Both the position numbers and the translations under genes were made by a program. Source: Acidobacteriaceae bacterium (lineage in GTDB: Bacteria > Acidobacteriota > Terriglobia > Terriglobales > Acidobacteriaceae). From it: DNA of 64,000 bases. The notes beneath the pieces are model-generated. The model was not told the DNA's origin, did no database searches, and worked only from the letters and a program-made list of their open reading frames with translations. Shown piece by piece: positions 2,007 to 29,957 of this stretch (the first letter of the stretch is position 1; each line of letters starts with the position of its first letter). Location: positions 1 to 64,000 of the forward strand of contig DAHUXR010000003.1 in assembly GCA_027307045.1 (NCBI GenBank). The letters are read 5' to 3'.

Positions 2007-2437
<431 letters not shown>

Positions 2438-2447
2438 AGAGAAAAGT

Positions 2448-3353
2448 ATGGCGATAACTCACAAAGCTTCTGAATCCAGCACGCAACTTGCGAAGGCGTG
2501 TCCACTGAACACAATCGGCGTAGTTGGCGCTGGGGTGATGGGTGCCGGGTTAGCTCAGGCGCTGGCCCAGGCGGGACTGCGGACTCTGCTGATCGATACA
2601 TCCGATTCAATCCTGGGTGCAGCCCTGGACAAGGTCAAAAACAATCTTCGCTTCCAGCGTCTGCTCCAGAAAGACTCTGTGGTCAATCCGCAGGAAGTGA
2701 TTGCCCGCATACAAGTTTCTACTGCCTATGATGTGCTGAGTGAAGCGGATTTCGTGATTGAAAACGTGACGGAGAAGCTTGACGTTAAGTCGCAGGTGCA
2801 TCGGCAAATGGAAGAAGCCTGCCCTGCTCATTGCATCTTCGCCGCAAATACTTCGGCCATTCCTATTACTCGAATCGCAGCCATGTCACGCCGCCCAAAC
2901 CAGGTTTTGGGCATGCACTTTATGAACCCCGTTCCATTGAAAACAACGGTGGAAGTTATTCGCGGGTATCACACCAGTGAGCAGACATTACAAGTGGCAA
3001 AACGGCTGCTCTCCTTGATGGGAAAAGAGGCCATTGTTGTTGGCGACTCACCCGGTTTTGTATCGAACCGCGTTCTGATGCTGACCGTAAATGAAGCCAT
3101 TTTTCTGCTGCATGAGCGGGTCGCCGCCGCGGAGGACATTGACGCTATTTTTAAGAACTGTTTTGGACACAAAATGGGTCCGCTTGAAACAGCGGATTTG
3201 ATTGGTTTGGACACCATCCTTTTTTCGATTGAGGTGCTTTACGAAGAATTCAAGGACAGCAAATTTCGCCCATGCCCATTATTAAAGCAGATGGTGGATG
3301 CGGGACTGCATGGACGCAAAAGCGGCCGAGGATTTTATAACTATGCCGATTGA
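2448..3353 (+). CDS. 3-hydroxyacyl-CoA dehydrogenase family (FkbK/ZmaG-like), intact
   Basis: This NAD-dependent 3-hydroxybutyryl/3-hydroxyacyl-CoA dehydrogenase has 301 residues, slightly longer than the usual 280-290. The N-terminal Rossmann motif reads GVVGAGVMGAGLAQAL (about 25-40). The catalytic region has NTSAIPITRIA and GMHFMNPVPLKTTVEVI with catalytic His157 and the paired Glu. GDSPGFVSNRVL and a C-terminal dimerisation domain ending GRKSGRGFYNYAD follow. In hydroxymalonyl/methoxymalonyl-ACP pathways this family oxidises the 2-hydroxyl of glyceryl-ACP. Its flanks are dead PKS and NRPS relics, yet it shows no lesion. A deleted paralogue lies at the equivalent position of the main cluster (29505-29672). 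I infer that this copy supplies the missing oxidation step in trans. A role in fatty-acid or butanoyl metabolism is the alternative. Confidence 0.85.
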   Translation: MAITHKASESSTQLAKACPLNTIGVVGAGVMGAGLAQALAQAGLRTLLIDTSDSILGAALDKVKNNLRFQRLLQKDSVVNPQEVIARIQVSTAYDVLSEADFVIENVTEKLDVKSQVHRQMEEACPAHCIFAANTSAIPITRIAAMSRRPNQVLGMHFMNPVPLKTTVEVIRGYHTSEQTLQVAKRLLSLMGKEAIVVGDSPGFVSNRVLMLTVNEAIFLLHERVAAAEDIDAIFKNCFGHKMGPLETADLIGLDTILFSIEVLYEEFKDSKFRPCPLLKQMVDAGLHGRKSGRGFYNYAD

Positions 3354-14900: not shown

Positions 14901-16737
14901 AGGGTGTGCCGCAATAGTTCGGGAAGATCAACCCGGAGAAAAACGAGTAGTGGCGTATTTGGTTACGAATGGCGCTGTTGCGCTGCCATTCAGGGACTTC
15001 CTCAAAGATCGATTGCCTGATCACATGATTCCATCAGCTTTTGTGGAGATAGATCAATTGCCGCTTACGCCAAACGGCAAGGTTGACCGCAAAGCACTGC
15101 CCGCTCCGGAAAGAGAATGGAGTGAACGGAGAGGCTATGTGGGCCCGCGCAATGGCGAAGAAGAAGTATTGTGCGATCTGTTTGCGGAAGTGTTAAACCG
15201 GGACCGCGTAAGTGTGCATGACGACTTCTTTGCCATGGGCGGACACTCGCTGCTGGCCACTAAGTTAGTAAGCCGGATCCGCGACACTTTGGGAGTAGAT
15301 GTAGCGCTGCGCAGCGTCTTTGAATCGCCCACCATTGCCAAGTTTGCACCGCGACTGCAAGATAGCGGGAAAGCCCGGAGTTCATTGCGACGCTACCCCA
15401 ACGTCGAGCGAGCACCGTTATCGTATTCCCAACGGCGGCTATGGTTCATCGATAAACTGAAGGGTAGCAGCGCGGAATATAACATGCCAGAGGCGTTGCG
15501 TTTGCGCGGCAGATTGGACGTGGACGCATTGCGCCGCACCGTCCAGTCCATTGTGGACCGGCATGAGAGCCTGCGCACCCATTTTGGAGAAGAGCAGGGG
15601 GAGCCGGTACAGATCATCGCGCCCAGCCTTACTGTTGAAATTCCAATGGAAGACCTCAGCCTGCTTTCTGAGCCCGAGCAGCAGCGGCAGGTGATGGCGT
15701 TCCTGAACAATGAATGGTGTGAACCATTCGATCTGGCTCATGGTCCTGTGCTGCGAGTGAAGCTGCTTAAGCTGGCGGAGGAAGATCATATTCTCCTGCG
15801 AACATTCCATCACATTGTCTCGGATGGATGGTCGCTGGGTGTGTTCATGAGGGAGTTCAGGGATCTGTATGAGGCTTACCTGCAAGGCCGCGAGAACCCA
15901 TTACCGGACCTGCCTCTGCAATTTGCGGATTTCGCTTTGTGGCAGACGCAATCGGCACGTGATGGACTTCTGGATGAAGATCTCCGGTTCTGGAAAGAGC
16001 AACTGGCAGGAATACCGGAAGAGTTGGAGATTCCACGTGATAGGGAACGTCCCTCTGTGCAGACTTTCGCGGCGGATGCTTGTGGAATAACTTTACCGGC
16101 GGAAAAAGTAGCGGCTTTGAAACAGTGCGGTCGCTCCACCTTATACATGACGCTGATTGCAGCTTTTGCCGTTCTGCTGCATCGCTACAGCGGACAGGAT
16201 GACATTGTGGTTGGTTCGCCCATTGCCAATCGCCAGGATGAGCGACTGGAGGGGCTGATCGGATATTTTGCAAACATGTTGGCGATGCGAGTAAGAGTGG
16301 ACCCCAACGCCAGTTTCCGCGAACTGCTTGATCAGGTACGTGAGTCTGCGTTGGAAGCCTATCGGCACCAGGACATTCCCTTTGAGCGGGTGCTGGAAAA
16401 ACTCTCTGTGAACCGCAGCTCAAACCGGACACCCGTCTTCCAGGTGATCTTTGCCCTCCAGAATGCTTCCTCAGGATCGCAGGAGCTTAAAGGACTCAAG
16501 ATTGAGGAACTGGGAGCAGAAGCCTGGACCGTGCGCTTCGATTTGGAGGTGAATGCTATCGAACGCAATGGACAACTGCACATCGTCTGGATTTACAACC
16601 GTGATTTGTTTGATCGCGGACGCATAGAGCAAATGGCGCGGCATTACGAGCGATTGCTAACCGCGGCATTGCAGGACCTGGACCAACCTGTCTGCAATTT
16701 GGGGACACTGGGCGCGAACGAAATACTTTCGGGATGA
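8914..16737 (+). CDS. NRPS1: C-A-T-C-A-T-C
   Basis: This 2607-residue synthetase starts with a charged helical segment (LKKDQAEEERELL) shared with NRPS2 and possibly a docking element. C1 starts at about residue 43 (LPLSWAQKRLWFL) with HHIVVDE at 178-184, where Gly of HHxxxDG is Glu. A1 spans about 505-1005 (YTSGSTGEPKG 656, YGPSE 794). Its pocket residues read by eye as DAMWMGGVFK, closest to valine-type codes. T1 has Ser1058. C2 has HHIISDG at 1251. A2 spans about 1580-2050 (YTSGSTGRPKG 1726, YGPSE 1860) with code DLFNNALTYK, alanine-type. T2 has Ser2112. C3 starts near 2167 with HHIVSDG at 2299 and ends the protein. The terminal condensation domain has no following adenylation domain and NRPS2 begins with its own C. 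C3 may therefore work on release or dock with another protein. Confidence 0.95.
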   Translation: MSPERAELKKDQAEEERELLRLLLQKEGLSSEAWEINSPETRERLPLSWAQKRLWFLDRLQPGNDFYNVVLACELHGDLNGPALERSLREIIHRHGALRTGIAVEDGEPVQKVEDSVEFRLQLLSLSNQEGAADTRKQAQEIIKQEVSKPFDLESAPLLRGVLIRIAEREHILALSIHHIVVDEWSMGILQQEIALLYAAYVQGQESPLQEMPLQYAEYTLWQIQWLQGEIFTRQMEYWTQQLAGMPEVLELPTDKPRPAMPQHRGSTDAVTIDKEYWENLKLFSRQEGASVFMTVLAVYQVLLSRYTGQTDFGVGTPITNRRHMRMEGMIGFCVNTLIMRADLRAEPTFREVLRRVRSATLDAFDHQDLPLEKLVEEFSPERQFSGSPLFQVTFTFMDGKAVPLELPGLEMRPMAPEITTSKYDLALLVVDREIPLLALNYDTGLFEADTIQQMLQHFGNLLATAIAEPELRICDLPMLTQDEIRQLLVEWNPTPVQFGRKCVHELFEEQVRRTPNAPAIVFEDVFLTYGELNRRANQLAHYLRSIGVKPETRVAIGVERGLEMVVGMAAVLKAGGAYVPLDLSYPAQRLRFMLQDSAPVAVLARSDRQDLPAGIEAGIQIIDLANEDVFTDLPETNLERAETGVDPECVACVIYTSGSTGEPKGSEIPHRSIPGFIFGTDYVPFDEESVLLQHSSVSWDAFTMELWPALLSGGRSVLARQRVMSAEEIREYVQGKGVNTLWLTAAQFNSIVESDVRCLEGVKYLMTGGEAASVRHVRRVKEQLPGMRVVNGYGPSECTVFSSCYVVPDELPESVISLPIGKPIGDRRMYVLDRAMNVSPIGVVGEAYIGGASVARGYLLRPDLTAERFVPDPYSAEGGERLYRTGDLVRWRRDGTIEFVGRNDDQVKVRGFRIELGEIEARLLEYDGVREAAVVALEDVAGNKRLVAYYTEGANDFQQSNGEGKVGAEELRRHLAQRLPEYMVPARYVRLEALPLTPNGKLDRKRLPAPDGNAYSVSGYEEPQGEVETMLAAIWREMLEIAKVGRNDDFFELGGHSLLAVTMIGRLREALRLEVEIGDVFEHSRLSELAGKISGGREAQLPPITKADRSQPLPLSYAQQRLWFLAQMEGVSEVYHMPFGVRLVGRLDRQALGLALDRIVQRHEALRTTFAMVDGEPVQRIAPVEGSHFILRDHDLRVNDLRQQADSEPGLRQLYEEEAHTSFDLEAGPLIRGRLVRQGEDQYALLITMHHIISDGWSVGVLLNELSVLYRAFVRGEADPLPELAVQYPDYAVWQRHWMQGKVLEQQAEYWKITLAGAPTLLELPADHVRPANQEYAGAWYDMVLDERLTAGLKELSKQHGATLYMTLVTGWAALMGRLSGQQDILIGSPVANRRQGELERLIGFFVNTLVLRTDLSNRPDVGELLERVKIQSLGAQQHQDIPFEQVVEAVQPERSLAHGPLFQVMFAWQNAPRGELDLVGLKTMGLEMASHRVARFDLTVSLWELGERIAGGVEYATALYEKATIERYMEYWRRMLEGIVAASGQIVDCLELLSEGERNQLLYEWNQTDAVYPHKCVHELFENQVRRSAEAIAVECEGQKLTYGELNRRANQLAHYLRKVGVGPEKRVGLCMERGLEMVIGLLGILKAGGAYVALDPDYPAERLKFMVEDSSLAVLLAQSGLLRQSPGSAQVIYLDHELAAIAQESGENVGLPLHPGNLAYVIYTSGSTGRPKGVAIQHSSANVLLHWVREVFSEKELDGVLASTSICFDLSVFEIFAPLSWGGKTIMMRNALSLAEIGQNAGVSLLNTVPSVMAELLRIKGVPDSIRTVNMAGEALPPNTVEQLFEESEVERIFNLYGPSEDTTYSTYACFKRGEASGRAVPIGKPISNTQAYVLDREYQPVPVGVIGELCLGGHGVARGYLNRPELTAEKFVPNPFVERGGERMYRTGDQVKWGQNGNLEFLGRLDQQVKLRGYRIELGEIEAVLRVHPGVEGCAAIVREDQPGEKRVVAYLVTNGAVALPFRDFLKDRLPDHMIPSAFVEIDQLPLTPNGKVDRKALPAPEREWSERRGYVGPRNGEEEVLCDLFAEVLNRDRVSVHDDFFAMGGHSLLATKLVSRIRDTLGVDVALRSVFESPTIAKFAPRLQDSGKARSSLRRYPNVERAPLSYSQRRLWFIDKLKGSSAEYNMPEALRLRGRLDVDALRRTVQSIVDRHESLRTHFGEEQGEPVQIIAPSLTVEIPMEDLSLLSEPEQQRQVMAFLNNEWCEPFDLAHGPVLRVKLLKLAEEDHILLRTFHHIVSDGWSLGVFMREFRDLYEAYLQGRENPLPDLPLQFADFALWQTQSARDGLLDEDLRFWKEQLAGIPEELEIPRDRERPSVQTFAADACGITLPAEKVAALKQCGRSTLYMTLIAAFAVLLHRYSGQDDIVVGSPIANRQDERLEGLIGYFANMLAMRVRVDPNASFRELLDQVRESALEAYRHQDIPFERVLEKLSVNRSSNRTPVFQVIFALQNASSGSQELKGLKIEELGAEAWTVRFDLEVNAIERNGQLHIVWIYNRDLFDRGRIEQMARHYERLLTAALQDLDQPVCNLGTLGANEILSG
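10438..11660 (+). repeat. Adenylation-domain duplicate, copy in NRPS1
   Basis: The DNA encoding A1 of NRPS1 is very similar to that encoding A1 of NRPS2 (18363-19585). Long identical runs are visible, for example around the SWDAFT pocket region, YVQG and NGYGPSECTVFSSCYVVP. The flanking condensation and carrier domains diverge more. This suggests domain duplication or gene conversion limited to the adenylation core. Confidence 0.75.
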
Positions 16738-16799: not shown

Positions 16800-19700
16800 A
16801 TGTCTTCAGGAAGAGTTGTATTGAAAAAAGATCGGTTGGAAGAAGAGCGGGAACTCCTAAGGCGTTTATTGGAGAAGGAAGGCCTTGGCGCTCCAGGCAC
16901 TCAGACAACGCAGAGTGTCGCGCAGGAGCAACTGCCATCTTCTTCATCGGAAGTCTCCGGAGCCAGACCTTCGCTCTTCCCGCTTTCCTATCAGCAGGAG
17001 CAGCTTTGGTTTCTGGAGAGATTCCATTCCGGCACTGCGTTCTACAACGTACCTATGACCTGGCGGGTCAAAGGCGACCTGGATGTTGCCACGCTGGAAC
17101 GTAGTCTGCAGGAGGTGGTGCGACGACACGAAATCCTGCGGACCTGTTTTGTGACGGACGAACACGGGAAACCCATGCAGAAGGTCATCGAGAAGAGACT
17201 CGATGTGCGGTTGCGGGTCATGGATCTGCGATACCTTGAACCGGGAGAGCGAGAGGAGCAGGCGAAGAAGATCATTGCTGACGAGAGTAATGCGGGATTT
17301 GATTTAAGCCGGGCGCCCTTATTCCGCGTAGTGTTGGTCTGCATGGAAGAAGGCGACCATGTTTGGGGGCTCACGCTGCACCACAGTATTTGTGATGAGT
17401 GGTCGTTAGCAGTATTGATGGAGGAGTTGGAGCAGTTGTACGAGGCGTATAGGAGAGGAGAAGAGTCGCCGCTGCCGGAGTTGGAAGTGCAATATGGGGA
17501 ATATGCGCGGGAGCAGAGGGAAGAGCTCAGTGGCGAGAAGCTTCAACAGCAGTTGGAGTACTGGAAAAGACAGTTAGACGGGATGCCTCGGGTGCTGGAG
17601 TTGCCCACGGACCATGTGCGGCCGGCAAAGCTGAGTTTCCGCGGCCGAATGCAAGCGCGAAACCTGGAGAGCCGTCTGTTGGAACGTGTGAGCGCGGTGG
17701 GAAAAGGCGAAGGGGCCAGTCTATTCATGACATTGCTGGCTGCATTCCAGGTGCTGTTGATGAGATACACCGGGCAAGAGGATTTTGGGCTCGGCACAGC
17801 CATAGCCAACCGTAGCCAATCAAAAATACATGGACTGATTGGTTACTTCGTGCACACGCTGGTGATACGCGCGAATCTGGATGGGGAGTTGACTTTCCGC
17901 GAAGTCCTGCGGAAGGTCCGACTGACGGCGCTGAACGCGTACGAGAATCAGGACCTGCCATTTGAAAAATTGGTGGAAGAATTGGCCCCGGATCGGGACC
18001 TTAGTCGTGGTCCGCTCATTCAAACAATGTTCTCAGTGCCCAGACCCACGGATTCAAAATTCGGGTCATTTCAGTTGAGCGAGTTCGAAACGAATATTCG
18101 AACATCCAAGTTTGACCTCGCCATGCTTGTCGAGGAATCCAAAGAGCCAAAGATTGCGCTCAACTACAGCACTGACCTGTTTGAAACAGGGACCATTGAG
18201 CGGATGCTAAGACATTACGAGCGGCTACTGACGGCCGTGGTGGAAAATCCGGAGCAGCGGGTTTGGGAGTTGTCTCTATTGACAGCTGAGGAAAGGAACC
18301 AACTCCAATCATGGAGCCTGACCGGCCGAGACTACGGCCGTGATAGGACGGTCGCAGAATTGTTCGAAGAGTGTGCGGCAAAAATGCCGAACAACGTGGC
18401 TGTGGAATACCAAGGCCAGGAATTGACCTATGGAGAGCTGAACCGGAGAGCGAATCGGTTGGCGCGTTACCTGAGAGGGTTCGGGGTAAAGCCGGAGACG
18501 CGCGTGGCGATTGGGTTGGAGCGTGGATTGGAAATGGTGGTGGGGATGGTGGCGGTGTTGAAAGCCGGGGGAGCTTATGTGCCTCTGGATCTGTCGTATC
18601 CAGAGCAACGCTTGCGATTCATGTTGCAGGACAGTGCTCCCGTGGCGTTGCTGGCGCGGAGTGATTTGCGGGATTTACCGGCCGGAATTGAAGCAGGCAT
18701 ACATATTGTGGATGTGGGGAATGAGGTTGTGTATGAGGATCAGCCGGAGGCGAACGTAGAACGGAGCGAAACAGGGGTTGATGCAGAATGCCTGGCTTAT
18801 GTGATCTATACCTCGGGTTCGACGGGGGAACCGAAGGGGAGTGAGATACCGCATCGCAGCATTCCGGGCTTCATTTTTGGAACGGATTACGTGAGCTTCG
18901 ACGAAGACACGGTGCTGTTGCAGCATTCATCGGTGAGCTGGGATGCATTCACGTTGGAACTGTGGGGCGCGCTGTTGCGGGGAGGAAGGAGTGTATTGGC
19001 GGAGCAGCAGCGAGTCACAAGTGGAGAAGAAATCCGGGAGTATGTGCAGGGTCGAGGAGTGAATACGCTGTGGCTGACGGCGGCGTTGTTCAATGTGATA
19101 GTAGAAAGCGATGTGAAGTGTCTGGAAGGATTGAAGTCTGTGGTGACTGGAGGGGAGACGGCGTCGGTGGCGCACATCCGGCGAGCGATGAAGGAGTTGC
19201 CGGGGATGAGGGTGGTGAATGGGTATGGGCCATCGGAATGCACGGTATTCAGCAGTTGCTATGTGGTACCGGAGGAATTGCCGGAGAGCGTGATCTCGCT
19301 GCCCATCGGCAAACCAATAGGAGACCGGCGGATGTATGTGCTGGATCGATGGATGAACGTGACGCCGGTGGGAGTGGTAGGGGAGGCCTATATTGGAGGA
19401 GCGAGTGTTGCGCGCGGGTACATGGGGCGAGCGGAAATGACGGCGGAGCGGTTTGTGCCGGATCCGTATGGCGGGGAAGTGGGGGCGCGATTGTACCGGA
19501 CGGGAGATCTGGTGCGGTGGCGGAGGGAGGGGACGATTGAGTTTGTAGGACGGAATGACTTTCAGGTCAAGGTACGCGGTTTCCGAATTGAGTTGGGAGA
19601 GATTGAAGCGATCCTGCAGCAGCAGAGTGGGGTACAGGGCTGTGCTGTGGTGGCGAAGACAGGCGTGAATGGAAGTAAACGTCTGGTGGCGTATGTGGTT

Positions 19701-22700
19701 GGGGATCTGAACCGTGAAGAATTGCGGCGGGACCTGAAAGGCAAGCTTCCGGCGTACATGATTCCCAATGCCATTGTCGGCTTGCAGGCATTGCCGTTGA
19801 CGAGCAATGGGAAGCTGGACCGGCAGGCATTGGAAAAGTTAGAGGATTTGGATTCGGGTGATTCAGGAGAGGACTACGAAGCTCCGTGTACTGCGGTAGA
19901 GGAACAACTGGCGGAGATTTGGGCCGCGGTGCTGGAAGTCACGCGAGTCGGGAGACGCGGTAATTTCTTTGATTTGGGCGGACACTCACTGTTGGCAGTC
20001 TCAATGGCATCGAGATGTCGGAATGTATTTGGACTGGATGTTCCGGTACGAGCGATATTCGAATCGCCAACGATCGCGGAACTGGCAGAGATAATCGAGA
20101 TTGAATTGAAATCACAGGGAAGGAAGCTGGGCGACGACAACGAGGCAATACCAGCGCAGAGATCTTCTGTCTCAAGACCTTCAGTTTTCCCGCTTTCTTA
20201 CCAACAGGAACAGCTTTGGTTTCTTGACCAGTTCCAGCCGGGCAGCGACTTTTACAACGTGCCCTTGGCCTGGAAACTCACAGGCGACTTGGATGTCCCC
20301 ACGCTGGAGCGCAGCCTGCAGGAAGTGGTACGGAGGCATGACCAGTTGCGGACCTGCTTTGTGATGGATCCTCAGGAAGGACTGAGGCAGAAAGTGGTTG
20401 GGGAAAAACTCGATGCTCGATTGCCGGTAATGGATTTGCGGCATTTGGCGGCAGACGAGCGTGAGGAACAGGCGAGGAAGATCGTAGAGGAAGAGGGTAG
20501 AAAGGTCTTTGATTTGACCCAGGTGCCCTTGTGGCGCGGAGTGTTGGTGCGGACGGAAGCAAGAGAGCACGTTCTGGGATTGACGCTGCACCACATTCTT
20601 TGTGACGACTGGTCTTTGCGAATTTTGATGAGTGAGTGGGGGAAATTGTACGCGGCATATAGAAAAGGAGACGAGTCGCCGCTGCCGGAATTGGAAATGC
20701 AATATGGGGAGTATGCGCTGGAGCAGAGGGAAAGGCTGAGTAAAGGAAAGTTCCAGCAGCAGATGGACTACTGGAAGGGGCAGTTGAAGGGGATGCCGCA
20801 AGTGCTGGAGTTGCCAACGGACCACGTGCGGCCGGCGCGAGAGAGTTTCCGCGGAGGGACAGAGCAGCGAATTCTAAGCAGCGACATGTTCGAAGGTTTG
20901 AACGCGGTGGGAAAAGCGGAGAGGGCCAGCTTATTCATGACGCTGCTCGCGGCGTGCCAGGTGCTGCTGATGAGGTACACAGGGCAGGAGGATTTTGGTG
21001 TAGGCACCGTGGTGGCCAACCGCAAGCGGGCAGAAATGGAACCGATTTTCGGTTTCTTCCTGAATACGCTGGTGATACGCGCGAATGTGGCCGGCGAGCC
21101 CACCTTCCGTGAAGTGTTGCAGCGGGTGCGGGCGGCGGCGCTGGCCGGGTACGAGCATCAGGACGTGTCATTTGAAAAGTTGGTGGAAGAATTGGCGCCG
21201 GACCGCGATCCCAGCCGCACTCCTCTATTTCAAGTGTTGTTTACCACGCTTGGCGAGCCCGACAAATTGGAATTTGGGGAACTGGAGTTAAGCGGCTTTG
21301 AGATTGATACTGGAATGTCGAAGTTTGATCTCGTCGTGAGTGTTCAGGAGGCCTCGCAGGGCGCAGCGGTTACCATCAACTACTCCGCTGACTTGTTTGA
21401 AGCGGAGACCATCCGGCGGATGCTGGGACATTACGAGCAGCTGCTGAAGACGGTGGTGAAGAATGCGGCGCAAAGGGTGTGGAATCTGCCTCTGTTGACC
21501 GAAGCAGAGAGGGAGCAACTGGAAAGATGGAACCAGACTTCCAGAGACTATCCGCGCGACAAAACCCTTGCGGCATTGTTCGAAGAGCATGCCGCAAGCA
21601 CACCGAACGCCGTGGCGGTGGAATACGAAGGGCAGGAATTAAAGTATGGTGATTTGAATCGCCAAGCCAATCAGCTAGCGCATCATCTGCGAGCGTTGGG
21701 AGTGAAGCCGGACACGCCGGTAGCCGTATGCGTGGACCGCAGCCTGGAAATGATTGTGGGGCTGCTGGCCGTGATGAAGGCCGGAGGGGCATACGTGCCG
21801 CTGGATCCCGCGTATCCGCAGGATCGATTGCAATTCATGCTTGAGGACAGCAGGCCGGCAGTGTTGTTGATACAAAGCCACCTTCGGGGGTTGTTCACAG
21901 AAATCAGAGAGGAGCTGAAATTAATTGAGCTGAGAGACGCAGAGGCGTGGGATAACCAACCCGACTCGAACCCGGAACACGCCACTATTGGATTGACGGC
22001 TAAAGACCTGGCGTACGTCATTTTCACATCGGGTTCTACCGGGCAGCCCAAAGGGGTTGCCATGCCGGTGGGCGCCGCAATGAACATGATTGCGTGGCAG
22101 ATGAAGGAATCAGCGTGGGCCGGACCACTGCGTACCTTGCAGTTTGCCCCATTCGGTTTTGACGTTTCATTCCAGGAAATTTTCAGCACACTTTGCGCAG
22201 GCGGAACTTTGCTCCTGATCGATGAAGAGAAAAGACGCAACGCCACAGAGATGGCGCGCTATGTGATGGAGAAAGGCGTTCAGCGTTTGTTTCTTCCTGT
22301 TGTGGGGCTACAAATGTTTGCCGAAGGCGTGGCCGAGATTGGGGAGCCTTTCAATTGCGCGCTGCGGGAAATCAACGTAGCCGGGGAGCAACTCCGCATC
22401 AATGCCAAGATAAGGGCACTCTTCAAACGCCTGGGGCACTGCCGGTTGAACAACCATTACGGTCCGACAGAAACTCATGCTGCAAGTGCATTCCAACTGG
22501 ATATGGAAACCGACCGTTGGCCCGTGTTGCCCCCGATCGGGCAACCGATTGCGAACGCGCAAATCTACATATTGGATAAGCACGAACAGTTTGTTCCGGT
22601 GGGAGTGGCAGGAGAACTATATATCGGCGGAGCGGGCGTCGCACGCGGGTATTTGAACCGTCCAGATTTGACGGAAAAACGATTCCTGAAGAATCGGTTT

Positions 22701-25700
22701 GCCAAGGAAGATGGATCGCTGATGTACCGGTCTGGCGACCTTGGGAGATGGCGGACGGATGGGACCATCGAGTTTATTGGACGGAACGATTCTCAGGTCA
22801 AGATACGCGGTTACCGTGTGGAATTGGGTGAGATTGAGGCGATACTGCAACAGCAGAGTGGAGTGCGGGACTGCGCTGTGGTGGCAAAGACCGGCACAAA
22901 TGGAAGTAAAAAGTTGATTGCGTATGTGGTGGGGGAAGGGGATTGTGATGAGTTGCGGCGAAATCTGAAAGGTAAGCTTCCAACGTATATGGTTCCGAGC
23001 GCCGTTGTGGCTTTGCCGGAGTTGCCGCTTTCGGGCAACGGGAAGGTAGACCGGGAGGCCCTGGAAAAACGAGAAGACCTGGATCAGGGAGCCGAGCATT
23101 ACGAACCTCCCGCGAATGCGGCAGAAAAGCGGCTGGCAGCGATTTGGGTTGAGGCGCTGGGAGTCAGGCGAGTTGGGAGGCACGATAGTTTCTTTGATCT
23201 GGGCGGACACTCATTGCTTGCGACATTGGTAGCAACGAGGATGGGAAACGCGTTTGGAACCTACGTTCCGGTGCGAGCATTATTCGAGTCGCCCACGATT
23301 GCGGAACTGGCAGAGGTGATAAGAGCCAGCCTGAGATTGTCGGGAAGGACACAAGACAAGCCCGCAATACCTAAGCCGGCAGTTTCTGGTCCAAGACCTT
23401 CTCTTTTCCCGCTGTCATACCAGCAGGAGCAGCTCTGGGTACTGGACCGGTTCAATCCCGGCAATGCGTTCTACAACATTCCCATGACCTGGAGGCTCAA
23501 AGGCGATCTCAATGTTGCCCGGCTGGAGAAGAGTTTGCAGGAGGTGGTGCGGCGGCATGAAATCCTGCGGACCTGCTTTGTCATGGAACGCGAAGAACCA
23601 AGACAAAAGGTTATGGAGCCGACATTCGATGTGCGGTTGCCGGTGGTGGATTTGCGGCAGTTGGAGTCGGGCCAGCGAGAGGAACAGGCGAAGAAGGTTG
23701 TAGCACAGGAGGCGAACAAGGCATTTGAGTTAAGCCAGGCGCCCTTGTTGAGAGCAGTGTTGGTGCGGACGGACGAAAAGGAGCACATTTTGGGGCTAAC
23801 GCTGCACCACATTATCTGTGACGACTGGTCATTAGGGCTCTTGATGAAGGAGTTGGGTAAATTGTATGAGGCCTATGGAAGAGGAAAAGAGCCGCCGCTG
23901 CCGGAATTGGAAATGCAATATGGAGAGTATGCGCTGGAGCAGAGGGAAGGACTGAGTGAAGGAAAGTTCCAACAGCAGATGGAGTACTGGAAAGGACAGT
24001 TGGAGGGGATGCCTCAGGTGCTGGAATTGCCAACCGACCACGTGCGGCCGGCGAAAGAGAGTTTCCGCGGAGCGTCGGAGCAGCGAATTCTGCGTATCGG
24101 CTTGCTGGAAGGCTTGAACGCCCTGGGGAGAGCGGAGAAGGCGAGCCTGCTCATGACTATGCTGGCGGCTTTTCAGGTGCTGCTGATGAGGTACAGCGGT
24201 CAGCAGGATTTTGGAGTTGGCACCGTGGTAGCCAACCGTAAGCGGATAGAGACAAAAGACCTGATTGGTTTTTTCCTGAACACGCTGGTGATACGCGCGA
24301 ATTTGCGCGGTGAACCAAGCTTTCGCGAAATGCTGCGAAGGGTGCGGGAGGCGGTGCTGGGTGGATATGAGCATCAGGATCTGGCATTCGAGAAGCTGGT
24401 GGAAGAATTGGCGCCGGTACGTGACGTTAGCCGCAGTCCTGTCTTTCAAGTGGCGTTTACGTTGCGCAGATCCATTGAGGGCAAGCCGGAATTAGGCGGG
24501 TTGGAGATGGTGCCATTCGAACTGGATCCGGGTACGTCCAAGTTTGATCTCATTATGGGTGTGGAAGAAGCCGGGCAGAACGCAGTGATTGGCCTTAACT
24601 ACAGCAAAGACTTATTTGAGGCGGAGACCATCCGGCACATGCTGGAACACTATGAGCGTCTTCTGGAAGCAATCGTTGCAGACGCTGATCAGTTAGTTTG
24701 GGCATTGCCCATGATGAGCGAGGTCGATGAGAAAATCCTATCCGGCTGGAATTGCGAGAGACCAGCTGCTCCTGAAGAGAAGAACGTCATTGAGTTTCTC
24801 GAAGTGCAAGCAGCGAGCCGGTCGCAAGAACCGGCTGCAATCTTTGGTGAAGAGCGACTCACCTATGGGGAACTGAACAGCAGAGCCAGCCAGTTTGGGC
24901 ATTATCTTGCTTCGATGGGAGTGGGGCCAGAGTCACTGGTGGGTATTTTCATGCCGCCTTCGAAAGAGATGATGGTGGCCACGCTGGGAGTCCTGAAAGC
25001 CGGTGGTGCCTGGCTGCCTTTGGATGTCCAGAATCCCAAAGATCGTTTGCGGTCCATGATTGACAGTTCAGAAGCTGCCGTGTTGCTGACCGTGGAGAGT
25101 CTGCGCAAGCGTCTTCCCCAGACCAATGCAGGAGTGGTCTGTTTGGATTCGGAATGGGAGATGATCGGGCAGCACAGCGCAACAAATCCTGATGTTCAGA
25201 TCAATCCATGGAGTCTCGCTTGCGTTATCTACACTTCCGCCCAGGAGGGACGCGCCAAAGGTCTGATGCTTGAGCACAGCGCGCTGATGAATCTTGTGTC
25301 GGCGTGCGATGCCGCTGGTACGGCGAAGCAAAATGGACACGCGAAGATTCAAGACAATGGCGATTTGGAAATTTGGCAGCGTTTGACATCCAGTTCTTTC
25401 CTGGTCTCCACCTCCGCCATGCTCACACCCGTGGAAGAAGAAGAACGAAATAGATTCAGGCCACACGGCAATGCAGCGATCTACCTTCTTGATCCGCACC
25501 TGCGGCGCGTTGCCATTGGAGTTCCGGGGGAATTGTGGATTGGCGGACCTGCCGCGGGCCGCGGTTATCTCGGGCGGTCTTCGCTGACAGCGGAGAAGTT
25601 TCTTCCCAATCCATTTACATCGGAAATGGGTGGACACATGCGCGGGACAGGAGAGCGTGCCCGATATAGAGAGGATGGAACTATCGAGCTTATGGGCAGA

Positions 25701-26336
25701 CTTGATGATCGGCTGGAAATCGAAGGCTTTCCGGTGGAACTGGGAGAAATCGAGGCCACTCTGGTGAGTTATGAGAGCGTTCGGGACGCGGTGGTAGTTG
25801 TGCGTCCCACTGGCGAACTGGTGGCTTATATCGTAGTTCGCGACGGAAAGAGATTGGTGCAAAACGAAGTGCGCAGTTACCTCGACGACAAACTGCCTCT
25901 TTACATGATTCCAGGCACTTTTATTACCGTGCAAGAGTTGCCCAGGAATGCCAGAAGTGAGGTGGACCGGGCCGCATTGTCTGTTCTGGGTCAGGCGCAA
26001 TTGACCAGGGAATTTGTCCTCCCGCGAACCGAACTGGAAAAAACCATTGCGGCTGCCTGGCAGGCCGCTCTTGGCATCGATCAGGTGGGAGTATATGACA
26101 ACTTTTTTGATCTTGGCGGGCACTCGCTCCGCATGATTCAAATCCATCAGAAGCTGCGGGCGGAACTTTCGCTTGATATTGAACTTCTCAACCTCTTTCA
26201 ATTTCCCACCATTGACTCTCTCGTCCGCTTTCTTCAGGCGGGTTACAACTTCGACGGCAAATCGCGTGAAACCCGGGACCGAGCCGGACGGCAAAAAAAC
26301 GCCATCCAAAAGTTAAAAAGGACGCACACACCATGA
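16800..26336 (+). CDS. NRPS2: C-A-T-C-A-T-C-A(dead)-T
   Basis: A 3178-residue synthetase 62 bases after NRPS1. C1 has HHSICDE at 194. A1 (about 520-1020; YTSGSTGEPKG 670, YGPSE 809) has code DALWVGGVFK, valine-like. T1 has Ser1063. C2 (about 1131) has HHILCDD at 1264. A2 (TSGSTGQPKG about 1743, YGPTE 1887) has code DVQFNAHAAK, nearest to proline-type codes. T2 has Ser2138. C3 (about 2202) has HHIICDD at 2336. A3 (about 2655-3060) is degenerate: the P-loop reads YTSAQEGRAKG at 2811, the segment holding A4-A5 and the substrate pocket is missing, A7 reads MRGTGE, A8 reads DDRLEIEGFP, and A10 reads RSEVDRAAL at 3052 without the catalytic Lys. T3 (LGGHSLRM, Ser3109) is intact. The reading frame is unbroken, so the third module needs loading in trans or is skipped. 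The stop overlaps the PKS start (ATGA). Confidence 0.95.
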   Translation: MSSGRVVLKKDRLEEERELLRRLLEKEGLGAPGTQTTQSVAQEQLPSSSSEVSGARPSLFPLSYQQEQLWFLERFHSGTAFYNVPMTWRVKGDLDVATLERSLQEVVRRHEILRTCFVTDEHGKPMQKVIEKRLDVRLRVMDLRYLEPGEREEQAKKIIADESNAGFDLSRAPLFRVVLVCMEEGDHVWGLTLHHSICDEWSLAVLMEELEQLYEAYRRGEESPLPELEVQYGEYAREQREELSGEKLQQQLEYWKRQLDGMPRVLELPTDHVRPAKLSFRGRMQARNLESRLLERVSAVGKGEGASLFMTLLAAFQVLLMRYTGQEDFGLGTAIANRSQSKIHGLIGYFVHTLVIRANLDGELTFREVLRKVRLTALNAYENQDLPFEKLVEELAPDRDLSRGPLIQTMFSVPRPTDSKFGSFQLSEFETNIRTSKFDLAMLVEESKEPKIALNYSTDLFETGTIERMLRHYERLLTAVVENPEQRVWELSLLTAEERNQLQSWSLTGRDYGRDRTVAELFEECAAKMPNNVAVEYQGQELTYGELNRRANRLARYLRGFGVKPETRVAIGLERGLEMVVGMVAVLKAGGAYVPLDLSYPEQRLRFMLQDSAPVALLARSDLRDLPAGIEAGIHIVDVGNEVVYEDQPEANVERSETGVDAECLAYVIYTSGSTGEPKGSEIPHRSIPGFIFGTDYVSFDEDTVLLQHSSVSWDAFTLELWGALLRGGRSVLAEQQRVTSGEEIREYVQGRGVNTLWLTAALFNVIVESDVKCLEGLKSVVTGGETASVAHIRRAMKELPGMRVVNGYGPSECTVFSSCYVVPEELPESVISLPIGKPIGDRRMYVLDRWMNVTPVGVVGEAYIGGASVARGYMGRAEMTAERFVPDPYGGEVGARLYRTGDLVRWRREGTIEFVGRNDFQVKVRGFRIELGEIEAILQQQSGVQGCAVVAKTGVNGSKRLVAYVVGDLNREELRRDLKGKLPAYMIPNAIVGLQALPLTSNGKLDRQALEKLEDLDSGDSGEDYEAPCTAVEEQLAEIWAAVLEVTRVGRRGNFFDLGGHSLLAVSMASRCRNVFGLDVPVRAIFESPTIAELAEIIEIELKSQGRKLGDDNEAIPAQRSSVSRPSVFPLSYQQEQLWFLDQFQPGSDFYNVPLAWKLTGDLDVPTLERSLQEVVRRHDQLRTCFVMDPQEGLRQKVVGEKLDARLPVMDLRHLAADEREEQARKIVEEEGRKVFDLTQVPLWRGVLVRTEAREHVLGLTLHHILCDDWSLRILMSEWGKLYAAYRKGDESPLPELEMQYGEYALEQRERLSKGKFQQQMDYWKGQLKGMPQVLELPTDHVRPARESFRGGTEQRILSSDMFEGLNAVGKAERASLFMTLLAACQVLLMRYTGQEDFGVGTVVANRKRAEMEPIFGFFLNTLVIRANVAGEPTFREVLQRVRAAALAGYEHQDVSFEKLVEELAPDRDPSRTPLFQVLFTTLGEPDKLEFGELELSGFEIDTGMSKFDLVVSVQEASQGAAVTINYSADLFEAETIRRMLGHYEQLLKTVVKNAAQRVWNLPLLTEAEREQLERWNQTSRDYPRDKTLAALFEEHAASTPNAVAVEYEGQELKYGDLNRQANQLAHHLRALGVKPDTPVAVCVDRSLEMIVGLLAVMKAGGAYVPLDPAYPQDRLQFMLEDSRPAVLLIQSHLRGLFTEIREELKLIELRDAEAWDNQPDSNPEHATIGLTAKDLAYVIFTSGSTGQPKGVAMPVGAAMNMIAWQMKESAWAGPLRTLQFAPFGFDVSFQEIFSTLCAGGTLLLIDEEKRRNATEMARYVMEKGVQRLFLPVVGLQMFAEGVAEIGEPFNCALREINVAGEQLRINAKIRALFKRLGHCRLNNHYGPTETHAASAFQLDMETDRWPVLPPIGQPIANAQIYILDKHEQFVPVGVAGELYIGGAGVARGYLNRPDLTEKRFLKNRFAKEDGSLMYRSGDLGRWRTDGTIEFIGRNDSQVKIRGYRVELGEIEAILQQQSGVRDCAVVAKTGTNGSKKLIAYVVGEGDCDELRRNLKGKLPTYMVPSAVVALPELPLSGNGKVDREALEKREDLDQGAEHYEPPANAAEKRLAAIWVEALGVRRVGRHDSFFDLGGHSLLATLVATRMGNAFGTYVPVRALFESPTIAELAEVIRASLRLSGRTQDKPAIPKPAVSGPRPSLFPLSYQQEQLWVLDRFNPGNAFYNIPMTWRLKGDLNVARLEKSLQEVVRRHEILRTCFVMEREEPRQKVMEPTFDVRLPVVDLRQLESGQREEQAKKVVAQEANKAFELSQAPLLRAVLVRTDEKEHILGLTLHHIICDDWSLGLLMKELGKLYEAYGRGKEPPLPELEMQYGEYALEQREGLSEGKFQQQMEYWKGQLEGMPQVLELPTDHVRPAKESFRGASEQRILRIGLLEGLNALGRAEKASLLMTMLAAFQVLLMRYSGQQDFGVGTVVANRKRIETKDLIGFFLNTLVIRANLRGEPSFREMLRRVREAVLGGYEHQDLAFEKLVEELAPVRDVSRSPVFQVAFTLRRSIEGKPELGGLEMVPFELDPGTSKFDLIMGVEEAGQNAVIGLNYSKDLFEAETIRHMLEHYERLLEAIVADADQLVWALPMMSEVDEKILSGWNCERPAAPEEKNVIEFLEVQAASRSQEPAAIFGEERLTYGELNSRASQFGHYLASMGVGPESLVGIFMPPSKEMMVATLGVLKAGGAWLPLDVQNPKDRLRSMIDSSEAAVLLTVESLRKRLPQTNAGVVCLDSEWEMIGQHSATNPDVQINPWSLACVIYTSAQEGRAKGLMLEHSALMNLVSACDAAGTAKQNGHAKIQDNGDLEIWQRLTSSSFLVSTSAMLTPVEEEERNRFRPHGNAAIYLLDPHLRRVAIGVPGELWIGGPAAGRGYLGRSSLTAEKFLPNPFTSEMGGHMRGTGERARYREDGTIELMGRLDDRLEIEGFPVELGEIEATLVSYESVRDAVVVVRPTGELVAYIVVRDGKRLVQNEVRSYLDDKLPLYMIPGTFITVQELPRNARSEVDRAALSVLGQAQLTREFVLPRTELEKTIAAAWQAALGIDQVGVYDNFFDLGGHSLRMIQIHQKLRAELSLDIELLNLFQFPTIDSLVRFLQAGYNFDGKSRETRDRAGRQKNAIQKLKRTHTP
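18363..19585 (+). repeat. Adenylation-domain duplicate, copy in NRPS2
   Basis: Partner of the near-identical adenylation-coding segment in NRPS1 (10438-11660). Pocket residues differ at only a few positions (DALWVGGVFK here, DAMWMGGVFK there), so both modules probably take the same or a very similar hydrophobic amino acid. Confidence 0.75.
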
Positions 26337-29300
26337 CCCGAGACGCACTTGACGGAATAGCAATCATCGGCATGGCGGGGCGATTTCCCCAGGCCCCTAA
26401 TCTTCAGCGATTCTGGGAAAATCTCTGCCAGGGAATCGAATCGACATCTTTTTTCTCTGAAGAGGAACTGGAACAAGCCGGAATCAGCCGTGAGCTGCTT
26501 CGTCATCCCAACTATGTGAGAGCCAGGGGAGTGTTGGAAGATGCTGATTTGTTCGATGCCGGCTTTTTTGGTTACTCGCCGCGCGAAGCAGAATTAACGG
26601 ACCCGCAGATACGGTTGCTTCTGGAGTGCGCGTGGGAAGTGCTGGAATCCGCGGGATGGAACCCGGAGAAATTCTCCGGAATGATTGGTGTTTATGCCGG
26701 AATGTCATTCAGCTCTTATATATGGCAACTTGCGGGAGAAGATACTGATGCGGATTCAGTGAGCGCTTTTCGCATCCTCATGGGTGGCGCTGAAAAAGAC
26801 CACTTGGCAACGACCATCTCTTACCGCCTTAACCTGCGCGGCCCGAGCTTAAACATTCAGACCGCGTGCTCCACCTCACTGGTTGCCGTGCATGCGGCTG
26901 CCCGCGCGGTAATGACCTATGAGTGCGATATGGCCATCGCAGGCGGCTCTACCGTCAATGTGCCCCAACGTAGCGGCTACATGTACGAGCCTGGGGGGAT
27001 TGCTTCAGCAGATGGTCACTGCCGCAGCTTCGATGCCGAAGCCAGCGGCTCAGTGAGCGGCGATGGAGTTGGAGTTGTTCTTTTGAAACGTCTGGAGGAC
27101 GCGATCGCCGCCGGCGATACGGTGTATGCAGTCATCAAGGGTTCGGCGATCAACAACGATGGCCGCAGGAAAGTCGGTTTCACTGCGCCCGCAGTGGAAG
27201 GGCAGGCGGAAGTCATTGCCCTGGCGCTGGCCGCAGCGGAAGCGGAATGCGAAAGCATTGGCTATATCGAGGCGCATGGCAGCGCCACACCAATGGGAGA
27301 CCCGATTGAGATTGCGGCGCTAAACCAGGTCTATGGTCAGGCTGGGCTTAAACCCGCAAGCATTGCCGTGGGATCGGTTAAGAGTAACTTTGGCCATCTG
27401 AACGCGGCTGCTGGAGTGGCTGGGTTGATCAAGACAATTTTGGCCGTCCGGCATGGCTCGATTCCCGCCTCCTTGAATTTCCGGCAGCCAAACCCTGCGA
27501 TTCCTTTCGGGCGCGGCCCTTTCCGTGTCAATCACACGCTCTCGCCATGGCCGGAGAGCAATAAGCCGAGGCGGGCAGGAGTAAGTTCATTCGGGATCGG
27601 CGGCACCAACGTTCATATGATTCTGGAGGAAGCGCCGGAGATAAAGCCATCCGATCCCGCCAAGCCCTGGCAGGTTATCACAATCTCTGCCAGGAGCCGC
27701 GAAGCGCTGGAGCGAGCTACGGATCAATTAGCCACACATCTTCTCGAACATCCGGAACAGAACTTTGCAGATGTCGCATTCACTTTGCAGGAAGGCAGAA
27801 AGGCTTTTGAGCACAGGCGCATGGCCGTGTGTCGCGATTCCTCCGCCGCGGCCAGTCTTTTGCAGTCTCGGATGCCTTCTCAGGTATTCACAACTATCTC
27901 AGCGTTGCGGCGGCGGCCTGTTGCTTTCCTGTTACCCGGTTTAGGCGACCAATACCTGGATATGGGCCGCGGCTTATATGAATCGGAGCCTGAGTTCGCG
28001 CGGCACGTGGACGAGTGCTCGGAGCTTCTCCAGCCGCTGTTGGGAGTTGACCTGCGCAAGACCATGTATCCCGATCCAAGAGTGAGGGAGCAGAATGAGG
28101 TCAGAACGGAAGAACGCATGAACTTCCGCAACCTGGTGCAGCGTGAGCGCGAAGGCAATTCCACGGCTTTGCAGGAAATTCACCGCACACTGTGGGCGCA
28201 GCCCGCGCTGTTTGTCATCGAGTATGCGCTGGCCAAGCTCTGGATAAGCTGGGGCATTATTCCTGAAAGCATGATGGGTTACAGCATTGGGGAATACGTG
28301 GCTGCGTGCCTGGCCGGCGTAATTTCCCTGGAAGACAGCTTGCATATGCTGGCGATTCGGGCGCAGAAAATTGAAGCGCTCGCCCCCGGTGCAATGCTGG
28401 CCATCGCAGCGTCAGAAACAGAAGTCCGTCCTCTGCTCACCCCGGAAATCTCCATGGCGGGCATCAACGGCAAATCACTTTGCGTAGTCGCGGGTACGCC
28501 AGAGGCGGTTGATGCGTTGCAACAGCGGCTGGCTCGTGAAGGCGAACTGGTGTGCAGGCGGCTTCTCGCAAGTCACGCCTTCCATTCACCGTTGATGGCG
28601 CCGGTGGCCGAGGAATTGACCAGACTTGCGCGGTCCATCCCTCTCAGTCCGCCCAGGATTCCTTACATTTCCAATGTGAGCGGCAAACCGATTACGGATG
28701 CTGAAGCGACGGATGCCACATACTGGGCGCGGCATCTGACGCTGCCGGTCCAGTTTGCCGCGGGCTTGCAGCACATGTGCTCGGCCACAGCGCCGGTATT
28801 CCTGGAAGTTGGCCCCGGTCAAATGTTAACGTCTCTTGCCGAGCAGTATCTTGCTGGCCGGGGTTTTGCCGACCGGGTTGCGCTCGCCTCGTTGCCGCAT
28901 GCTTCGGACGCGCAGCCAGATCGCGCTTTTATTCTCAGCACCCTTGGAAATTTATGGCTTGCTGGCATTGAACCGGACTGGACCGCGCTCCACCGGGATG
29001 AACATAGGAGGCGCGTGCAGCTTCCCACGTATCCTTTCGAGCGGCAACGCTATTGGCTTTCGCCACGCAGGCAGCCGCAGCAGCAGCGAGAGGCCGGGCC
29101 TGTAAAGGCCGCTACCGCGGCTGCTTCAATCGGACAGGAGATAGGTTCGTCACAGCAAAACATCAAGCTCGAAAGCAACGGTGTGGAGAATTCACGGTCA
29201 CATCTGAGCGCCGAGTTTGTTGCGCCTGGCAATTCCACCGAGCAAAAGATTGCGGAAATATGGGAGGAATTGTTGGGAATCCATCCCATTGGAATTCATG

Positions 29301-29530
29301 ACGAGTTTCTGCGGTTAGGCGGCAATTCACTGCTGGCCATAAAGGTAGCGGCTGAATTGCGTGAAACATTCCAAATCGAGTTACCGCTTGCGGCGCTTTT
29401 GCGATCGTCTACCGTATCTGAGATTGCCCTATTTGTCGAGGACGCCCTGTTGACCATGATCGAGAACATGGATGAGTCTGAACTGTCCGGAATGGAGACA
29501 AACGATGTTTACCCATCCGCCACCGACTGA
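26333..29530 (+). CDS. Type I PKS module: KS-AT-ACP
   Basis: A single 1065-residue extension module without reductive domains, so it would leave a beta-keto group. The ketosynthase (about 8-430) has Cys179 in TACSTSL, His315 in EAHGSATPMGD (usual HGTGT altered to HGSAT) and His355 in FGHLNAAAG: a complete triad. The acyltransferase (about 520-870) has GYSIGEY with Ser651 and the HAFH motif at 748-751. The linker inside AT is extended (residues about 580-625). The carrier (about 955-1040) has LGGNSLLA with Ser999 and looks peptidyl-carrier-like. Translation is coupled to NRPS2 by an ATGA overlap, so the KS probably accepts the NRPS2 peptidyl chain. The extender genes that follow suggest hydroxymalonyl-ACP as extender. 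HAFH on its own is typical of malonyl-type ATs, so specificity remains open. Confidence 0.95.
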   Translation: MTRDALDGIAIIGMAGRFPQAPNLQRFWENLCQGIESTSFFSEEELEQAGISRELLRHPNYVRARGVLEDADLFDAGFFGYSPREAELTDPQIRLLLECAWEVLESAGWNPEKFSGMIGVYAGMSFSSYIWQLAGEDTDADSVSAFRILMGGAEKDHLATTISYRLNLRGPSLNIQTACSTSLVAVHAAARAVMTYECDMAIAGGSTVNVPQRSGYMYEPGGIASADGHCRSFDAEASGSVSGDGVGVVLLKRLEDAIAAGDTVYAVIKGSAINNDGRRKVGFTAPAVEGQAEVIALALAAAEAECESIGYIEAHGSATPMGDPIEIAALNQVYGQAGLKPASIAVGSVKSNFGHLNAAAGVAGLIKTILAVRHGSIPASLNFRQPNPAIPFGRGPFRVNHTLSPWPESNKPRRAGVSSFGIGGTNVHMILEEAPEIKPSDPAKPWQVITISARSREALERATDQLATHLLEHPEQNFADVAFTLQEGRKAFEHRRMAVCRDSSAAASLLQSRMPSQVFTTISALRRRPVAFLLPGLGDQYLDMGRGLYESEPEFARHVDECSELLQPLLGVDLRKTMYPDPRVREQNEVRTEERMNFRNLVQREREGNSTALQEIHRTLWAQPALFVIEYALAKLWISWGIIPESMMGYSIGEYVAACLAGVISLEDSLHMLAIRAQKIEALAPGAMLAIAASETEVRPLLTPEISMAGINGKSLCVVAGTPEAVDALQQRLAREGELVCRRLLASHAFHSPLMAPVAEELTRLARSIPLSPPRIPYISNVSGKPITDAEATDATYWARHLTLPVQFAAGLQHMCSATAPVFLEVGPGQMLTSLAEQYLAGRGFADRVALASLPHASDAQPDRAFILSTLGNLWLAGIEPDWTALHRDEHRRRVQLPTYPFERQRYWLSPRRQPQQQREAGPVKAATAAASIGQEIGSSQQNIKLESNGVENSRSHLSAEFVAPGNSTEQKIAEIWEELLGIHPIGIHDEFLRLGGNSLLAIKVAAELRETFQIELPLAALLRSSTVSEIALFVEDALLTMIENMDESELSGMETNDVYPSATD

Positions 29531-29672
29531 CAATAAACCCTCTGGAGAAGCTCTGGACGTTCCCGGCCTGGAAGCTATAGGTGTGATTGGGTCGGCAAGT
29601 CATGGGTTTGGCCTGGCCCATGCGTTGGCGCGCCGTAAGATCGGGCGCGGGTTATACAGCTATGAGAATTGA
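29505..29672 (+). pseudogene. 3-hydroxyacyl-CoA dehydrogenase, internal in-frame deletion relic
   Basis: ATG 29505 has GGAG 7 bases upstream and overlaps the PKS end by 26 bases. The 55-codon frame begins with a linker, then AIGVIGSASHGFGLAHAL, which matches the Rossmann-fold start of the intact dehydrogenase at 2448 (TIGVVGAGVMGAGLAQAL). It then jumps directly to ARRKIGRGLYSYEN, matching that protein's last residues (GRKSGRGFYNYAD). About 245 central residues, including all catalytic ones, are missing, but start signal, frame and stop survive. The position (PKS, this gene, ACP) is where a methoxymalonyl/hydroxymalonyl cassette would carry its dehydrogenase. The intact paralogue 26 kb upstream also follows a PKS-type tail. 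Confidence 0.8.
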
Positions 29673-29696
29673 CCAATCCAGCAAAGAAGGAAGTTC

Positions 29697-29957
29697 ATGG
29701 AACAAACGAAAGAAAAACTTAGGGCTTTTCTGACGCGACATATAGCTGGCCGGACGATTGCCGACGAGGACCAGATTTTTGCGTCTGGCTTTGTCAATTC
29801 CATGTTTGCCATGCAACTCGTGTTGTTCCTGGAAAAGAACTTCAAGATTGCCATTGGTAATGAGGACCTGGAGCTAAAAAATTTTCAGAGTATTAACGCC
29901 ATGGCAGACCTGATAGAGAGAAAGACCCCGCACTCACAAAACGGTTCGAATTCATGA
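29697..29957 (+). CDS. Discrete acyl carrier protein for extender-unit synthesis (FkbJ/ZmaD-like)
   Basis: An 86-residue stand-alone carrier. The phosphopantetheine site lies in FASGFVNSMFAMQLV with Ser35; the GFVNS-x-FAMQLV form is characteristic of ACPs that carry glyceryl, hydroxymalonyl or methoxymalonyl units, unlike the LGG-HSL form of the megasynthase carriers here. Conserved acidic residues follow (GNEDLELKNFQSI). A Shine-Dalgarno-like AAGGAAG precedes the start. It sits between the deleted dehydrogenase and the acyl-CoA dehydrogenase, 10 bases from the latter. The expected role is to receive the three-carbon unit from the FkbH-like enzyme and hold it through two oxidations before transfer to the PKS acyltransferase. 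Confidence 0.9.
   Translation: MEQTKEKLRAFLTRHIAGRTIADEDQIFASGFVNSMFAMQLVLFLEKNFKIAIGNEDLELKNFQSINAMADLIERKTPHSQNGSNS

What the first reader, a model, noticed from the sequence alone, without database searches (positions are those of the whole stretch)
24760..26000. Dead adenylation domain retained in frame at the NRPS-PKS junction
Module 3 of NRPS2 has intact C and T domains, but its A domain has lost the P-loop consensus (YTSAQEGRAKG), the A4-A5 pocket block, the A7 aspartate motif and the A10 lysine. The frame is unbroken over more than 1.2 kb, so the protein is probably still made. The carrier must then be loaded by another adenylation domain, bypassed, or passed a chain without extension. 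In the decayed upstream locus the A domain before the PKS tail is also cut, so this position looks prone to loss.
Basis: partly seen in the sequence, partly recalled or inferred. Interest (0 to 1): 0.65.

Follow-up and report, generated by a model that had tools for sequence, protein, structure and literature searches.

The report
Gutted adenylation domain, conserved in frame
In a soil Acidobacterium's peptide-polyketide assembly line, one amino-acid-loading domain has lost its substrate pocket and catalytic residues yet is kept in frame in all three related species that carry the line, so the module is probably still used with its carrier charged by another loading domain.

Summary
NRPS2 (16800-26336) is C-A-T-C-A-T-C-A*-T. 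The third A domain, A* (about 24729-25994), is not merely point-decayed: 90-110 residues carrying A4, A5 and nine of the ten pocket positions are excised in frame. A3, A7, A8 and A10 are also lost. C3 and T3 keep their active motifs.

It is not an assembly error. Two other Candidatus Angelobacter-group genomes have the same gutted A* at the same place (88% and 80% aa identity). No ortholog with an intact A was found.

Because the loss predates the split of the three species, dN/dS measures selection after A* died: A* 0.24-0.31, its live neighbour A2 0.11-0.16, C3 0.15, T3 0.06-0.07. A* is relaxed but still constrained; C3 and T3 are as constrained as live domains. This favours a working module whose carrier is charged by another A domain, over a skipped module.

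Dead or truncated A domains with carriers charged elsewhere are known (SidD, albicidin; capreomycin for an A-less module). This is a new variant of a known kind; the loader was not identified.

The parts
23403..24740 (+). C3 condensation domain of NRPS2 module 3; HHIICDDWS intact; 67% aa identical to C2 of the same protein
   Evidence: dN/dS 0.15
24729..25994 (+). A*, gutted adenylation domain: A3, A7, A8 and A10 lost, A4-A5 pocket block excised in frame
   Evidence: AlphaFold model keeps the A fold outside the excised lobe
25311..25457 (+). junction of the excision, about 50 low-similarity residues; the small indels between species here are all multiples of three
   Evidence: model pLDDT under 50 over parts of this stretch
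26034..26240 (+). T3 carrier domain, DNFFDLGGHSLRM, phosphopantetheine serine present; most constrained domain tested
26241..26333 (+). C-terminal tail of NRPS2, probable docking to PKS1; similar to the tail before the related PKS in G001 C190
   Evidence: docking role is inference
26333..29530 (+). PKS1, KS-AT-ACP, start overlaps the NRPS2 stop; KS cysteine and ACP serine present
   Evidence: dN/dS 0.11-0.13
16800..26336 (+). NRPS2, C-A-T-C-A-T-C-A*-T
2084..2434 (+). decayed upstream locus: A-domain fragment fused in frame to the last ~30 residues of a PKS

Best explanation
A* is a catalytically dead adenylation pseudo-domain kept as a structural part of a module that still works. The C3-A*-T3 module still accepts and extends the chain: T3 is phosphopantetheinylated, charged with an amino acid by another A domain of the assembly line (inter-modular loading, with the preceding A2 of the same protein the simplest candidate), C3 makes the bond, and T3 hands the chain to the KS of PKS1. 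Shown: loss of catalytic residues and pocket by sequence, in-frame retention in three species, purifying selection on C3, T3 and, more weakly, A*. Inferred: that T3 is charged from elsewhere, which A does it, and that A* serves as spacer or platform between C3 and T3.
For: All ten specificity positions are deleted or changed, and the A3, A7 and A10 catalytic residues are lost. The same gutted A* lies at the same position in G004 C15 and G001 C120, with no intact ortholog among nine genus genomes. dN/dS measured after the loss: A* 0.24, 0.27, 0.31 (95% limits together 0.16-0.42), A2 0.11-0.16, C3 0.15, C2 0.15-0.19, T3 0.06-0.07. So C3 and T3 are not relaxed, as they should be if the module were skipped. 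The indels in A* between species are all multiples of three. KS and ACP motifs of PKS1 are intact. The model of A* is confident over most of its length (mean pLDDT 81) and matches solved A domains, Z 34 over 370 residues to 4d4i. Precedents: SidD module 2 with a truncated A and T2 loaded by A1, and SidC A3 loading T4 and T5 (PMC10192304); capreomycin CmnI loaded by CmnA-A1 (PMC12400406).
Against: No product or biochemistry is known. dN/dS rests on only three species and cannot show catalysis. The G001 line has further damage (most of T1 of NRPS2 deleted with a frameshift, ACAD and FkbH genes absent), so that copy may be dying. No loader was identified: none of the seven short A-like ORFs inspected in the window's genome looks like a stand-alone NRPS A domain. 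A* is significantly relaxed relative to A2, as slow decay would also give.
Confidence: 0.55

Rival explanations
1. Module skipping: the chain moves from T2 straight to the KS of PKS1, and C3-A*-T3 is by-passed relic sequence.
For: A* is dead. Skipping is a known outcome of dead domains (own knowledge: myxochromide).
Against: C3 and T3 remain as constrained as live domains after the A* loss, and T3 is the most constrained domain tested. The T3 tail next to PKS1, not T2, resembles the tail of the related line that feeds a PKS.
Confidence: 0.2
2. Transfer without extension: T3 receives the chain from T2 as an acyl shuttle to the KS, without an added residue.
For: Would explain strong constraint on T3.
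Against: C3 keeps full condensation motifs and constraint; no transfer-only role of C3 is indicated.
Confidence: 0.08
3. Charging in trans by a dedicated A or A-T protein or split module elsewhere, as in albicidin, ramoplanin or syringomycin; for instance the A-MT-T start of NRPS4 (40467 on), which lacks a C domain, or the A-T of contig C288. This is a sub-case of charging from elsewhere, so it overlaps with the best explanation.
For: Such trans-complementation of a dead A is known (PMC8949500). NRPS4 begins with an A domain without a C.
Against: NRPS4 is missing from the G004 cluster, where A* is kept, and the orphan C that ends NRPS1 is the more natural partner of the NRPS4 start. No stand-alone NRPS-type A was found among the short A-like ORFs inspected in G000.
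Confidence: 0.2
4. Neutral decay: the line is non-functional and A* is a pseudogene stretch still in frame by chance.
For: G001 shows further breakage, and the upstream locus in the window is clearly decayed.
Against: dN/dS well below 1 for A*, C3, A2 and PKS1 in all three pairs; no stop in any of the three A* frames; indels all multiples of three.
Confidence: 0.06

Closest known systems
SidD / Nps6 module 2 truncated A (dA) and SidC inter-modular loading (fungal siderophore NRPS, PMC10192304)
   Same: A truncated, inactive A domain is left in a module whose carrier is charged by the A domain of a neighbouring module.
   Different: SidD lacks about 290 N-terminal residues; here the N-terminal and C-terminal parts stay and the pocket block in the middle is gone. 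Bacterial, and at an NRPS-to-PKS junction. Loader not shown here.
Albicidin and cystobactamid lines with an inactive A complemented by a stand-alone A-T (PMC8949500)
   Same: Bacterial hybrid line with an A domain present in the main line but non-functional.
   Different: There the core motifs are poorly conserved and an A-T partner exists; here the pocket is deleted and no such partner was found.
Capreomycin CmnI, A-less module charged by CmnA-A1 (PMC12400406)
   Same: Bacterial module without a working A charged by the A of another module.
   Different: CmnI has no A domain at all.
Bripiodionen BpdC inactive A (PMC10956176)
   Same: Inactive A in a bacterial PKS-NRPS hybrid.
   Different: The line has a separate NRPS subunit, BpdD, proposed to supply the aminoacyl group; no such subunit was found here.

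Membership tests
Functional NRPS adenylation domain (PF00501 type) | A3 P-loop YTSGSTG-PKG | tested here: not met
   YTSAQEGRAKG in the window, YTGAQEGHAKG in G004, YAAALEGHAQG in G001
Functional NRPS adenylation domain (PF00501 type) | substrate pocket A4-A5 with ten specificity positions | tested here: not met
   block absent; A3-A8 spacing 155 against 235-285
Functional NRPS adenylation domain (PF00501 type) | A7 aspartate and A10 lysine | tested here: not met
   GTGER and RSEVDR
Functional NRPS adenylation domain (PF00501 type) | overall fold | tested here: met
   model pLDDT 81, Z 34.1, rmsd 2.3 over 370 residues to 4d4i, excised lobe apart
C-A(dead)-T module charged by another A domain (SidD/SidC, albicidin, CmnI type) | inactive or absent A with intact C and T | tested here: met
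C-A(dead)-T module charged by another A domain (SidD/SidC, albicidin, CmnI type) | module maintained by selection after loss of A | tested here: met
   dN/dS C3 0.15, T3 0.06-0.07
C-A(dead)-T module charged by another A domain (SidD/SidC, albicidin, CmnI type) | carrier shown to be loaded by another A domain | not testable with these tools
   needs protein mass spectrometry
Albicidin-type trans-complementation | stand-alone A or A-T partner | tested here: inconclusive
   the seven short A-like ORFs inspected score 67-159 bits against 452 or more for most full NRPS A domains scored in this genome; genome 93.7% complete; contig C288 has an A-T

The most novel reading that the evidence does not exclude
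A* is a selected adenylation pseudo-domain whose remaining fold has a non-catalytic job: it holds C3 and T3 at the right distance, or docks the A domain that charges T3, at the hand-over from peptide to polyketide synthesis. Parallel gutting in another Angelobacter line (G001 C179) would make pocket excision a recurrent way for this genus to turn a module into a carrier-sharing module.
Probability: 0.3. Interest if true: 0.55.

Novelty: new variant of a known kind. Interest (0 to 1): 0.42.

Why it matters
Prediction tools read one residue per A domain, and a dead A makes the predicted product wrong. Here is a natural case, fixed in three species, where selection on C and T after the death of A can be measured, which helps to separate 'charged by another A' from 'skipped' without chemistry. 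It also gives a natural module with the pocket cut out and the rest of the fold kept, of use to those who re-engineer such lines.

Tried and rejected
Assembly error: rejected, same state in two other assemblies. Loss-prone position: rejected by full-length A domains at the G001 C190 junction and at least nine other homologous NRPS-to-KS junctions. FkbH-type glyceryl loading of T3: considered because FkbH, ACAD and a carrier lie downstream, but the cluster has its own FkbJ-like carrier (29697-29957), and G001 keeps A* without FkbH or ACAD in the cluster, so dropped. Other split A domains in the genus: the G001 C179:32978-34174 signal lies just before a KR domain and reads better as the pseudo-subdomain of a keto-acid A-KR module, and the G001 C89 split looks like an insertion; neither was counted. 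Whole-module structure prediction failed once and had not finished when last polled. First paper searches on 'inactive adenylation domain' were swamped by ubiquitin E1 papers.

Full report
What is there. NRPS2 runs 16800-26336 in one frame of 3178 aa. Its domains are C-A-T-C-A-T-C-A*-T, and PKS1 (KS-AT-ACP, 26333-29530) starts in its stop codon. The third A domain, A*, lies at about 24729-25994. Pfam AMP-binding matches only positions 2-196 and 346-384 there. Aligned with seven intact A domains of the window, A3 reads YTSAQEGRAKG, A4 and A5 are missing, A7 reads GTGER, A8 reads RLEIEG and A10 reads RSEVDR. A3 and A8 are 155 residues apart, against 247 and 252 in the two live A domains of the same protein and 235-285 in the homologues scored. 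So the pocket has been cut out, about 90-110 residues, and the remaining catalytic residues have been lost by substitution.

It is real and shared. A search of 150 related genomes found the same protein segment in only two others, both in the same genus: G004 C15 at 88% and G001 C120 at 80% identity. A scan of one genome per species named them as a Terriglobia MAG and Candidatus Angelobacter sp. Gp1-AA117. Both have the same excision and lost motifs, in the same order of genes from NRPS2 through PKS1 to NRPS3. Three of nine genus genomes carry it, and none carries an intact ortholog.

Selection after the loss. Since all three share the excision and lost motifs, the loss most simply came before they split, and the divergence between them measures selection on a line with a dead A. 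dN/dS (Nei-Gojobori, codon bootstrap) for the three pairs: A* 0.24, 0.27, 0.31; A2 0.11, 0.16, 0.15; C3 0.15 in each; C2 0.15, 0.15, 0.19; T3 0.06, 0.07, 0.06; PKS1 0.13, 0.11, 0.11. A* exceeds A2 in over 99% of bootstraps and is below 1 in all. So A* is relaxed but constrained, while the C and T around it are constrained like live domains. The small indels in A* are all multiples of three. A predicted model of A* is confident apart from its ends and the junction of the excision (mean pLDDT 81) and superposes on solved A domains (Z 34.1, rmsd 2.3 over 370 residues).

How it most likely works. Skipping the module would leave C3 and T3 free to decay; they have not. The best reading is that T3 is charged by another A domain and used. 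The preceding A2 is the simplest candidate, by analogy with SidD A1 and SidC A3, which load carriers one or two modules on, with the C domain of the receiving module needed in SidC (PMC10192304). A dedicated partner, as in albicidin (PMC8949500), was not found: the seven short A-like ORFs inspected in this genome do not resemble NRPS A domains. The A domain that opens NRPS4 without a C is possible, but NRPS4 is absent from the G004 cluster, and the orphan C that ends NRPS1 fits it better. Which A loads T3 is not shown.

The upstream locus does hold an A fragment (2084-2347) running into the last ~30 residues of a PKS (to 2434), but that fragment has intact A7 and A8 motifs and the join is one deletion across several domains. 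Homologous junctions elsewhere keep a full A: the related line in G001 C190, whose PKS is 62% identical to PKS1, and at least nine others (G119, G126, G061, G043, G005, G028, G016, G123, G065). The position is not generally prone to loss. Gutting is not unique to it either: G001 C179 has another dead A (YTSSSTRWTKR, A4 deleted) between intact C and T domains, and G001 C30 has an A2-region deletion; these are single-genome cases and could include assembly faults.

Known or new. Dead, truncated or absent A domains with carriers charged elsewhere are established (PMC10192304, PMC8949500, PMC12400406, PMC2644324). The paper found on this genus reports its many NRPS clusters; a text search of it found no mention of truncation or deletion (PMC9723581). 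New here are the kind of loss (pocket excised, both flanks kept), its place before a PKS, and the selection evidence. New variant of a known kind.

Noticed in passing
L045 5131-18000 (G001 C179), aa about 1047-1455: A second, independent dead A domain: YTSSSTRWTKR, A4 deleted, NLYAPTE, with intact C and T around it.
   Followed up: partly
L126 5953-16290 (G001 C30), aa 1546-1994: A domain with about 66 positions around A2 deleted in frame; A3-A10 intact.
   Followed up: partly
window 15409-16737 and 40467 on: NRPS1 ends in a lone C domain and NRPS4 starts with an A lacking a C; together they could form one module split at the C-A linker.
   Followed up: no
window 29531-29957 and 2448-3353: The 3-hydroxyacyl-CoA dehydrogenase that follows PKS1 in G004 is reduced to a remnant here, before an FkbJ-like carrier (29697-29957); another copy sits in the decayed upstream locus and may replace it for an alkoxymalonyl-type extender.
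   Followed up: partly
L043/L044 (G001 C120): G001 ortholog lacks most of T1 of NRPS2 with a frameshift, and lacks ACAD and FkbH between PKS1 and NRPS3: the line may be breaking down there, or the assembly is faulty.
   Followed up: partly
L041/L042 (G004 C15): G004 lacks NRPS4; the similar 3' ends of NRPS3 and NRPS4 suggest a recombination between them.
   Followed up: no
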